Part shown: positions 12,932 to 14,846 of the stretch, piece by piece
Layout of the letters: every line of letters begins with the position of its first letter
How positions within the stretch are numbered: position 1 is the first letter of the stretch
Source: Streptomyces sp. NBC_01298
Lineage (GTDB): Bacteria > Actinomycetota > Actinomycetes > Streptomycetales > Streptomycetaceae
NCBI RefSeq assembly: GCF_035978755.1
Contig: NZ_CP108414.1
Location: 1,178,001-1,242,000, forward strand
Length of the DNA: 64,000 nt
Direction of reading: 5' to 3'
Program-made: the position numbers and the translations under genes
Notes under the pieces: model-generated
Databases searched by the model: none
Told to the model about the DNA's origin: nothing
The model's input: the letters and a program-made list of their open reading frames with translations, nothing else

Positions 12932-13672
12932 ATGGGACTTGCGGCGCGAAGGACCCGACACCTGTTGACGACATTGACCGAAGTCTTCACAGTCCGGCCG
13001 TACACCCCCCACTGCCAGGTAATCAATGCCGAAGGCGATCACGCCGTGATCGGCATCTCACCCGGAAACAGCTACTTCTCCGCCCAGCGCGTTCTCGACC
13101 TCGCCCAGTGGGGCATGCGTCATTTCGCGCAGGTCGATCTCATCTACACCGACCTGCACGTGGCCGAGATGTACGAGGCGCTCGGCTACGACGCCGACGA
13201 AGCCCGGCGCAAGGCGGTCAAGAACCTGCGGGGCGTCCGCGCCAAGGTCAACAACGCCGCGGCGGAGGCCGACCCCAGCGGCGAGCGTCTGCGTGCGCGG
13301 CCCATGTCGGCCCTCACGGACATTCCCGCGTACCGCGCGCTCCACGCCCACCTGTACAACCTGCTCGACACCGACCCGGAGTTCCGCAGGACCTGCAATT
13401 CCCTGGTCGATTCCTTCCTCTCCTCCAAGGTGCTGGGCGGCAAGACCGCCACCACCCGGCAGCGCGAAGTCTGCCTGGAGTACGTCTGCGCCGAGGCGCC
13501 GCTCTTCCTGGACACCCCCGCGATCCTCGGGGTTCCGTCCTCCCTCAACTGCTACCACCAGCTCCTGCCGATGGCGGAACTGCTCTACTCACGCGGCTCC
13601 GGTCTGCGCGCCTCGCGCAACCAGGGACACGCCGTCATCACCCCCGCCGAAGGAGCACCCGATGTCCACTGA
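12932..13672 (+). CDS. tRNA-dependent cyclodipeptide synthase, Rv2275-like
   Basis: Uses two aminoacyl-tRNAs to make a cyclic dipeptide. In 246 residues the nucleophile motif HAVIGISPGNSYFS places catalytic Ser at 43 and the NYH-subfamily Asn at 46. Tyr184 and Glu188 of YVCAEAPLFLDTP and Tyr208-His209 of LNCYHQ complete the active site. Whole blocks match M. tuberculosis Rv2275 (a cyclo-Tyr-Tyr synthase) as remembered: EGDHAVIG-SPGNSYFS, EARRKAVKN-RGVRAK, and AEAPLFLDTPAILGVPSSLN followed by CYHQ and GSGLRASRNQGHA. Cyclo(Tyr-Tyr) is therefore the expected product. The ATG at 12932 has only a weak purine-rich leader. A TTG 11 codons in is possible, and the N-terminus is shorter than in Rv2275. 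The last 11 bp overlap the P450 start. No promoter was recognised in 12747-12931. Confidence 0.93.
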   Translation: MGLAARRTRHLLTTLTEVFTVRPYTPHCQVINAEGDHAVIGISPGNSYFSAQRVLDLAQWGMRHFAQVDLIYTDLHVAEMYEALGYDADEARRKAVKNLRGVRAKVNNAAAEADPSGERLRARPMSALTDIPAYRALHAHLYNLLDTDPEFRRTCNSLVDSFLSSKVLGGKTATTRQREVCLEYVCAEAPLFLDTPAILGVPSSLNCYHQLLPMAELLYSRGSGLRASRNQGHAVITPAEGAPDVH

Positions 13673-14846
13673 GACCCTTCTCGACTTCCCGTTCTCCGCG
13701 CGCGGCGACCAGCTGCCCCCCGAGGTCGAGGAGTTGCGCGACGAGCCGGTCAAGCGGGTCCGCACGATCGCCGGTGACGAAGCCTGGCTCGTCTCCTCCT
13801 ACGAGCTGTGCAAGCAGGTCCTGGAAGACCCCAGGTTCAGCCTGAAGGACACCTCGGCCCCCGGGGTGCCCCGCCAGTACGCGCTGACGATCCCGCCCGA
13901 GGTCGTCAACAACATGGGCAACATCACCGGGGCCGGTCTGCGCAAGGCCGTCCTCAAGGCGATCAACCCCAAGACCGACGGCCTCACCGACTGGATGCGC
14001 GCCGAGGCCTCCACCCTCGTCGACGGCCTCCTCACCCACGGGGCCCCGGTCGACCTGCGCAGCCAGTTCACCAACCCGTACGCCGAGAACCTGCACTGCC
14101 GCATCCTCGGCATACCGCAGGCCGACGCCCCGCGCCTGGCGTCCAGCCTCGACATCGCGTTCATGAACTCGGCCTGCCCCGTCACCGGTGCCAAGCTCAA
14201 CTGGGACCGGGACATGGCCTATATGGTCGAGCGCCTGGACGACCCCACCACCACCGGGCTCGTCTCCGAGCTGGCGGCCCTGCGCACGGACCCCCAGTAC
14301 GCCCACCTCACCGACGAGATGCTCGCCACGGTCGGGGTCACCCTGTTCGGTGCCGGGGTCATCTCCACCATGGGCTTCCTGACGATGGCGGTCTTCTCCC
14401 TGCTCCAGAACCCGGACGTGTGGGAGCAGTTGCGGAAGTCGCCGGAGAAGATCCCCGGCGCAGTGGACGAACTCCTGCGGGTCAACCTGTCGATCGCCGA
14501 CGGCCTGCCCCGTCTCGCCCTCGAAGACCTCACCCTCGGGGACGTCGAGGTGAAGAAGGGGGAGCTCCTCCTCGTCCTGGTCGAGGCCGCCAACACCGAC
14601 CCGGCCGTGTTCAGCGACCCCCACGTCGTCGACATCGACCGGGAGAACGCGGCCACCCACCTCTCCTTCGGCGGCGGGCAGCACTACTGCCCCGCCACCG
14701 CGCTCGGCAAGCGGCACGCCGAGATCGCCATCGAGGTGCTCCTGGAGAAGATGCCCCGCCTCCAGCTCGCCGTGCCGGTCGACCAGCTCGTCTGGCGCAC
14801 CCGGTTCATGAAGCGCCTCCCCGAGCGGCTCCCCGTCCTCTGGTAG
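13662..14846 (+). CDS. cytochrome P450, CYP121-like (mycocyclosin synthase type)
   Basis: A 394-residue soluble P450, co-translated with the cyclodipeptide synthase (11-bp overlap; GAAGGAG before its ATG). The heme ligand is Cys343 in GGGQHYCPATALG. Similarity to M. tuberculosis CYP121 (396 residues) runs end to end, from PFSARGD near residue 10 through PPEVVNNMGNI, FGAGVIST, ADGLPRLA and QLVWRTRF to the C-terminus PERLPVLW. CYP121 substrate-pocket residues Phe168, Trp182 and Ser237 correspond to Phe167, Trp181 and Ser235. The positions of Gln385 and Arg386 are Met383 and Lys384 here (numbering from memory). CYP121 couples the two tyrosine rings of cyclo(Tyr-Tyr) to form mycocyclosin; the same C-C coupling is the first hypothesis. 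Confidence 0.93.
   Translation: MSTETLLDFPFSARGDQLPPEVEELRDEPVKRVRTIAGDEAWLVSSYELCKQVLEDPRFSLKDTSAPGVPRQYALTIPPEVVNNMGNITGAGLRKAVLKAINPKTDGLTDWMRAEASTLVDGLLTHGAPVDLRSQFTNPYAENLHCRILGIPQADAPRLASSLDIAFMNSACPVTGAKLNWDRDMAYMVERLDDPTTTGLVSELAALRTDPQYAHLTDEMLATVGVTLFGAGVISTMGFLTMAVFSLLQNPDVWEQLRKSPEKIPGAVDELLRVNLSIADGLPRLALEDLTLGDVEVKKGELLLVLVEAANTDPAVFSDPHVVDIDRENAATHLSFGGGQHYCPATALGKRHAEIAIEVLLEKMPRLQLAVPVDQLVWRTRFMKRLPERLPVLW

What the first reader, a model, noticed from the sequence alone, without database searches (positions are those of the whole stretch)
12932..14846. A mycocyclosin-type operon (Rv2275/CYP121-like) in a streptomycete
The cyclodipeptide synthase and the P450 match the M. tuberculosis Rv2275-CYP121 pair block by block, in the same order, with an 11-bp overlap. 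Active-site residues Ser43, Asn46, Tyr184, Glu188, Tyr208 and His209 of the synthase and the heme Cys343 of the P450 are all present. CYP121 is usually discussed as peculiar to mycobacteria; an orthologous pair in Streptomyces would point to transfer or a wider role for mycocyclosin.
Basis: partly seen in the sequence, partly recalled or inferred. Interest (0 to 1): 0.85.

Follow-up and report, generated by a model that had tools for sequence, protein, structure and literature searches.

The report
Streptomyces mycocyclosin/guatyromycine gene pair (gym-type)
Two neighbouring Streptomyces genes encode an enzyme that joins two tyrosines into a ring and a P450 that then probably cross-links or decorates that ring; this is a further copy of a gene pair already described as widespread in Streptomyces, so it is ordinary.

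Summary
A cyclodipeptide synthase (12932-13672, more likely starting at the TTG at 12965) and a P450 (13662-14846) overlap by 11 bp, with the named catalytic residues present. Identity to Rv2275 and CYP121 is 62.6% and 61.3%. The nearest solved P450 is not CYP121 (543 bits) but GymB1 (8q6z, 781 bits, 86.5% identity), whose sequence lies letter for letter in a Streptomyces flavidovirens locus. A review states that six such two-gene 'gym' clusters gave mycocyclosin plus guatyromycines A and B in S. albus (PMC10092475, passages). The P450 is common in the genus: 76 of 392 Streptomyces genomes have one at 68% identity or more. Pairs also occur in Streptacidiphilus, Yinghuangia, Actinomadura, Longimycelium and Nocardia. 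Trees put the window deep among streptomycetes and CYP121 beside Nocardia; recent mycobacterial transfer is not supported. Three close relatives carry the pair as a ~2.0-kb block at another chromosomal site. Side result: mycobacterial CYP121 differs from all 100 other rows at pocket positions 74, 280, 385 and 386, so it, not the Streptomyces enzyme, looks like the unusual one.

The parts
12830..12964 (+). conserved upstream block (presumed promoter and leader) that goes with the pair
   Evidence: TGTCC and GAGTTAC are identical in all 12 aligned rows, and GTCGCCGCCACA..GGGCACAGGGCCCC nearly so; similarity to three relatives with the pair at another site begins at 12817-12834. No sigma-70-like site was found in 12600-15000. 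Promoter role is inferred.
12965..13672 (+). GymA-type cyclodipeptide synthase, predicted cyclo(L-Tyr-L-Tyr) synthase; the ATG at 12932 is probably upstream of the real TTG start
   Evidence: NCBIfam NF052540 cyclodityrosine synthase 428 bits against a cut-off of 300; Pfam CDPS; Rv2275 2x9q 320 bits; P1 VGITMLFN, P2 LSFSQLP, catalytic SNYEYH; start
13662..14846 (+). GymB-type cytochrome P450 (CYP121 family), predicted mycocyclosin-forming and nucleobase-coupling
   Evidence: GymB1 8q6z 781 bits, CYP121 1n40 543 bits; 86.5% and 61.3% identity; heme Cys343; 11 of 16 listed ligand-contact residues as in CYP121; upstream AAGGAG
14845..14914 (.). inverted repeat (31-nt arms, 77% complementary) between the convergent P450 and GH35 genes; possible shared terminator
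   Evidence: the terminator scan, which demands a T-run, found none; role inferred

Best explanation
This is a gym-type two-gene biosynthetic cluster. The first enzyme takes two Tyr-tRNAs, loads one tyrosyl on its active-site Ser (Ser43 in ATG numbering), adds the second and closes the ring to cyclo(L-Tyr-L-Tyr). The second, a P450, oxidises that product: it either joins the two phenol rings by an intramolecular C-C bond (mycocyclosin) or couples one phenol to guanine or hypoxanthine (guatyromycines). Shown here: gene content, family membership, catalytic and specificity residues, selection, distribution, phylogeny. Inferred from characterised relatives: the reactions and products. Not shown: expression, redox partner, native role.
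For: CDPS: NF052540 equivalog above cut-off. P1 VGITMLFN is letter for letter one of the motifs printed for the cYY-making CDPSs 94-97, and P2 LSFSQLP fits their pattern (PMC5816076, passages). P450: best PDB match GymB1, 86.5% identity; the 393 aligned GymB1 letters lie unchanged in the P450 of L133, S. flavidovirens, and the window shares a 40-row set (support 98) with it. A CDPS lies beside the P450 in 80 of 80 named loci. The two proteins' distances correlate (r 0.77, 96 rows, 0 of 999 permutations as high). In 91 loci no flanking gene is shared by more than 22. Six gym pairs gave mycocyclosin and guatyromycines A and B in S. albus (PMC10092475, passages).
Against: No product was measured. 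The primary gym paper (anie.202200377 / PMC9401060) is not held, so I could not check which six loci were tested or how products varied. The CDPS is only 74.0% identical to that of L043, the same locus as L133. Characterised cYY synthases also made cYA and cYF in E. coli (PMC5816076), so minor products are likely. No structure model was obtained.
Confidence: 0.83

Rival explanations
1. A strict CYP121-like pair: the P450 makes mycocyclosin only and does not couple nucleobases.
For: 61.3% identity to CYP121 and 11 of 16 contact residues identical.
Against: The five contact residues that differ (L62, I78, I280, M385, K386 in CYP121 numbering), and Y74 outside that list, all agree with GymB1 and 8q6x. 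In the printed PtmB alignment, read by eye, Y74, I280 and K386 are also found, with I at 385.
Confidence: 0.12
2. The pair reached Streptomyces by recent transfer from a mycobacterium.
For: Patchy distribution in Streptomyces: 94 of 392 genomes at E<=1e-120. In the first tree seven Streptomyces rows join the Mycobacterium-Nocardia-Longimycelium set with support 86.
Against: The window P450 is nested among other streptomycetes (nearest 98%), while mycobacterial rows form their own set beside Nocardia. In the CDPS tree 86 Streptomycetaceae rows are on one side of a branch, support 98. Streptomycetaceae plus Actinomadura as one clade is not rejected, AU p 0.42.
Confidence: 0.02
3. The pair makes a different main product, for example one based on cYF or cYA, or is silent in this strain.
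For: CDPSs 94-97 made 57.7-71.3% cYY with cYA and cYF beside it in E. coli (PMC5816076, passages). Many such clusters are cryptic (general knowledge).
Against: Asn at P1 position 8 is reported as essential for tyrosyl recognition (PMC5816076, passages) and is present; the P450's pocket is that of GymB1 at 17 of 17 positions compared.
Confidence: 0.03

Closest known systems
gym clusters of Streptomyces (GymA/GymB; GymB1 structure 8q6z)
   Same: Same two gene families side by side, P450 86.5% identical to GymB1 and the same as it at the 17 pocket positions compared
   Different: CDPS 74.0% identical to that beside the GymB1-identical P450 (L043); this strain not tested for product
Rv2275-CYP121 of Mycobacterium tuberculosis
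   Same: Same families; catalytic residues, P1 type and 11 of 16 contact residues shared
   Different: 62.6% and 61.3% identity; 11-bp overlap here, 4-bp in the three named Mycobacterium loci fetched (no M. tuberculosis locus was among them); five contact residues differ
gut/ptm (guanitrypmycin) CDPS-P450 pairs
   Same: Related P450, 58.9% identity to the copy elsewhere in this genome; nucleobase coupling known in both groups (PMC10092475, PMC13122648, passages)
   Different: Their CDPS makes a Trp cyclodipeptide; the copy in this genome has P1 LGVALFFA instead of VGITMLFN
AlbC (albonoursin CDPS)
   Same: CDPS family and catalytic set
   Different: 35.8% identity, P1 ends in Leu instead of the Tyr-selecting Asn

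Membership tests
gym two-gene cluster | CDPS directly followed by a P450 whose nearest characterised relative is GymB | tested here: met
gym two-gene cluster | no further conserved tailoring gene | tested here: met
   In 91 loci no flanking ORF family of 200 aa or more is shared by more than 22; the widest is a response regulator in one Streptomyces group (18 of 91 directly downstream or nearly so). The window's own neighbours recur beside the pair only in L125 and L151; L114 has a 46% carboxylesterase hit farther off. Flanks held are 4 kb or less a side for the 80 named loci
gym two-gene cluster | makes mycocyclosin and guatyromycines A and B | not testable with these tools
   needs expression and LC-MS
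NYH cyclo(Tyr-Tyr) CDPS (Rv2275 group) | NYH trio and catalytic Ser/Tyr/Glu/Tyr | tested here: met
   SNYEYH at AlbC 37, 40, 178, 182, 202, 203; the AlbC numbers are recalled
NYH cyclo(Tyr-Tyr) CDPS (Rv2275 group) | P1 motif VG(V/I)TMLFN and P2 L-x-(F/Y)-x-Q-L-P | tested here: met
   VGITMLFN / LSFSQLP. The AlbC pocket positions were recalled; 204 was put in after my first choice (160) did not match the published motifs, and Streptacidiphilus melanogenes L092 then gave a published motif
NYH cyclo(Tyr-Tyr) CDPS (Rv2275 group) | above NCBIfam NF052540 cut-off | tested here: met
   428 against 300 bits
CYP121 family of P450s | over 40% identity (P450 family rule, recalled), heme Cys, contact residues | tested here: met
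   61.3%, Cys343, 11 of 16 contacts
CYP121 as in mycobacteria | groups with mycobacterial CYP121 in a tree | tested here: not met
   Groups with streptomycetes; mycobacterial rows group with Nocardia
gut/ptm guanitrypmycin pair | Trp-type CDPS pocket | tested here: not met
   VGITMLFN is the Tyr type

The most novel reading that the evidence does not exclude
Mycobacterial CYP121 is a narrowed descendant of a nucleobase-coupling cYY oxidase. On the mycobacterial stem, pocket positions 74 (Tyr to Asn), 280 (Ile to Phe), 385 (Met to Gln or Ala) and 386 (Lys to Arg) changed, closing the nucleobase route and leaving mycocyclosin alone; Nocardia and Longimycelium homologues, like the window, keep the older state and should still couple guanine.
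Probability: 0.25. Interest if true: 0.45.

Novelty: new member of a known kind. Interest (0 to 1): 0.17.

Why it matters
It corrects a common assumption: CYP121-type enzymes are not a mycobacterial speciality. The streptomycete pairs are a large natural comparison set for a well-known drug target and suggest which pocket residues are peculiar to mycobacteria. The locus itself adds one more gym cluster to many.

Tried and rejected
Recent transfer from mycobacteria: not supported by the P450 and CDPS trees. Carriage on plasmids or phages: no plasmid record covers 80% of the block (best 8%) and no phage match at 1e-40. A larger cluster: the window's flanks are a carboxylesterase, GH35, GH5 and transporter genes; my first statement that nothing else is conserved beside the pair rested on the window's neighbours alone, so I searched all flanks of 91 loci and found group-wise shared genes only. 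P2 position 160 of AlbC as fifth pocket residue: dropped because it gave K where published motifs have Q. Alignment A2 held four loci read on the wrong strand; A3 replaced it. In one search, CDPS lengths of 16 and 1 aa for L070 and L085, and their gaps, are artefacts of my ORF walker (the gene is there). Rows dropped: of 113 loci, 12 with a P450 identical to an earlier row, plus L031 and L145-L156, were left out of the 105-row P450 set; L070, L085 and L143 had no CDPS of 180 aa or more and were not in the 101-row CDPS set; L083, L119 and L122 were then left out of the CDPS tree; L115, whose CDPS aligns badly, was kept. 8q6x was left out of the second P450 tree for its long branch. A structure model was wanted and not obtained.

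Full report
What is there. The window lies in a genome of 9.7 Mb (G000:C1:1178001-1242000). It carries a CDPS gene and a P450 gene on the + strand that share 11 bp. Pfam gives CDPS (E 2.6e-89) and p450 (E 7.3e-16); NCBIfam gives the equivalog 'cyclodityrosine synthase' at 428 bits against a cut-off of 300.

Start of the CDPS. The ATG at 12932 is not conserved. In the 13 rows printed before the script stopped (window and L032-L043), 8 keep it; L032, L033, L039 and L042 have ACG and L043 AGG. L033 and L042 also have indels before the TTG at 12965 and L043 an in-frame stop. All 13 keep the TTG with GAAGGA or AAAGG before it. I take 12965 as the more likely start; this is inference from comparison.

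Which relatives are closest. Rv2275 (2x9q) is the best solved CDPS (320 bits; 62.6% identity over 230 aligned residues). For the P450 the order is GymB1 8q6z (781 bits), 8q6x (580), CYP121 1n40 (543), 9o4d (515), PtmB 8yxt (495). Identities are 86.5% to GymB1, 68.3% to 8q6x and 61.3% to CYP121. The 393 GymB1 letters that one search printed lie unchanged in the P450 of L133 (Streptomyces flavidovirens DSM 40150), which is identical to that of L043.

What is published. From passages of PMC10092475: mining of Streptomyces genomes found a widely distributed gym cluster with cdps-p450 genes, and six of these expressed in S. albus gave mycocyclosin, guatyromycine A (guanine on the phenolic hydroxyl) and guatyromycine B (hypoxanthine at the ortho position); [quoted passage not shown] it was not held and I have not read it. 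From passages of PMC5816076: CDPSs 94-97, three from Streptomyces and one from Streptacidiphilus, make 57.7-71.3% cYY in E. coli, with P1 VG(I/V)TMLFN and P2 LRFDQLP, LAYSQLP, LAFSQLP or LSFEQLP. From passages of PMC5767969: a CYP121 homologue in 176 of 721 cyclodipeptide clusters, in mycobacteria and related actinobacteria. From passages of PMC6408508: CYP121 is among families shared by Streptomyces and Mycobacterium, and among those highly populated in mycobacteria. Of PMC7954767 and PMC13122648 I also saw passages.

Specificity. The window CDPS has P1 VGITMLFN and P2 LSFSQLP; Rv2275 has VGVTMLFN and LRFTQLP; AlbC LGVVLLFL and MAVNITP. The pocket positions in AlbC numbering were recalled and checked only by their agreement with the printed motifs. 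Position 204 was chosen after 160 failed to match; L092 (Streptacidiphilus melanogenes) then gives LAYSQLP, one of the published motifs. So P2 is supported but was fitted in part.

P450 pocket. PMC11084333 (table passage) lists 16 residues within 5 A of the ligand in 3G5H; that 3G5H holds cYY is recalled. The window keeps 11; L62, I78, I280, M385 and K386 differ from M, V, F, Q and R. Five mycobacterial rows (CYP121, L061-L063, and L142, which is unnamed and taken as mycobacterial from its place in the tree) were set against the 100 other rows. Position 74 is N 5 of 5 against Y 100 of 100; 280 F 5 of 5 against I 98 and V 2; 385 Q 3 and A 2 against M 98 and I 2; 386 R 5 of 5 against K 100 of 100. 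Positions 62 and 78 do not separate the groups (2 of 5 and 1 of 5 mycobacterial rows have the other state). Two cautions: the named loci were fetched with the patterns [IV]PPEVVNN and MGNI[TA][GD]AG, so conservation there is partly selected; and the rows are related, so 100 rows are not 100 events. Nocardia, 70.6% identical to CYP121 (L064), shows the streptomycete state in 3 of 3. That the mycobacterial state is derived is a parsimony inference; that it bears on nucleobase coupling is a guess, and I could not see whether it is already in print in the gym or PtmB papers.

Distribution. 94 of 392 Streptomyces genomes have a P450 at E<=1e-120; by hand count of that listing 76 of 392 have one at 68% identity or more (75 over nearly the full length; G345 over residues 3-345). 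In a phylum-wide draw it is 6 of 396 genomes, 2 of 245 genera. The genome-contig scan found 186 relatives, of which the best 80 by similarity to CYP121 were kept: 3 Mycobacterium, 3 Nocardia, 1 Longimycelium, 1 Actinomadura, 2 Yinghuangia, 8 Streptacidiphilus and 62 Streptomyces. All 80 have a CDPS match beside the P450 on the same strand. Overlap: 11 bp in 45 of 80, 4 bp in 19 of 80, other values in 16, two of which are artefacts.

Neighbours. ORFs of 200 aa or more flanking the pair in 91 loci (80 named, 11 of 20 kb) were compared all against all. The widest sharing was 22 of 91, a response regulator; 18 of 91 have a copy at 88-100% identity on the same strand near the P450, 17 of them within about 125 bp and L098 681 bp away. 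Next came 10 of 91 (an amino acid kinase), then 8 of 91 (an alpha/beta hydrolase). These look like fixed sites in groups of related species, not a third biosynthetic gene of the cluster as a whole.

Evolution. P450 tree (105 rows, quick IQ-TREE, SH-aLRT only): the window is with L032-L034 inside a 14-row set with support 100 and a 40-row set with support 98. The mycobacterial rows form one set (100), joined by Nocardia (92), Longimycelium (94) and then seven Streptomyces rows (86). Without 8q6x, 92 Streptomycetaceae rows fall on one side of a branch (support 94) when ungrouped rows are not counted; Streptomycetaceae plus Actinomadura as one clade is not rejected (93 rows against 11, AU p 0.42); Mycobacterium plus Nocardia is one side of a branch with support 92, which is suggestive only. 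CDPS tree (98 rows): 86 Streptomycetaceae rows on one side, support 98. Distances of the two proteins correlate (r 0.77 over 96 rows), which relatedness of the strains alone could give. I see no reason to invoke recent exchange with mycobacteria; older exchange is not excluded.

A movable block. In L146, L147 and L150 (85.6-88.5% DNA identity) the similarity to the first 30 kb of the window runs only from 12817-12834 to 14847, that is, the leader and the two genes (matches of 150 bases or more at 1e-20). At the place in G121 that corresponds to the window's locus (L157), window 6247-12694 and 14874-20545 are matched at 85.5% and 86.7%, but the pair's block is not; in its place lie a second carboxylesterase and an IS110-family transposase, while G121's own pair is at 1285025. 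In G113 (L151) the left side matches and the right does not. So the pair sits at a variable site. No repeat pair bracketing the block stood out among those listed (which lists the largest only), and the block was not found on plasmids or phages.

Verdict. A sound observation, correctly placed in its enzyme families, but of a known and common cluster type. The right label is gym-type, with mycocyclosin as one of its likely products.

Noticed in passing
L145:7716-9741 (G000:C1:2990715-2992740): The same genome has a second CDPS-P450 pair: CDPS 42.3% identical with a Trp-type P1 motif LGVALFFA, P450 58.9% identical to the window's and closest to 9o4d and PtmB, so probably a guanitrypmycin-type pair; a PadR-like regulator gene lies upstream and no cyclodipeptide oxidase gene was seen among the 20 ORFs tested.
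   Followed up: partly
PDB 9o4d/9o5i: These chains are labelled 'Cytochrome P450 121' but score 649 bits against this genome's guanitrypmycin-type P450 and 515 against the window's P450, so the label may hide a nucleobase-coupling type.
   Followed up: no
window:12817-14847: The pair with its leader is a ~2.0-kb block found at another chromosomal site in three relatives at 85-88% DNA identity; the corresponding site in G121 holds an extra carboxylesterase and an IS110 transposase instead.
   Followed up: partly
window:14847-25623: In G113 (L151) the DNA right of the pair matches window 25623-29709, its first part inverted, so about 10.8 kb with GH35 and GH5 genes differs between close relatives.
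   Followed up: no
L075:5265-7345: In one Streptomyces group a two-component response regulator gene, followed in L075 by a gene that reads like its sensor kinase (by eye), lies directly downstream of the P450: 18 of 91 loci have the regulator. Whether it controls the pair is unknown.
   Followed up: partly
L115, L083, L119, L122: CDPS reading frames in these Streptomyces or Streptacidiphilus loci look partial or disturbed beside a P450 frame of full length; assembly error or decay not told apart.
   Followed up: no
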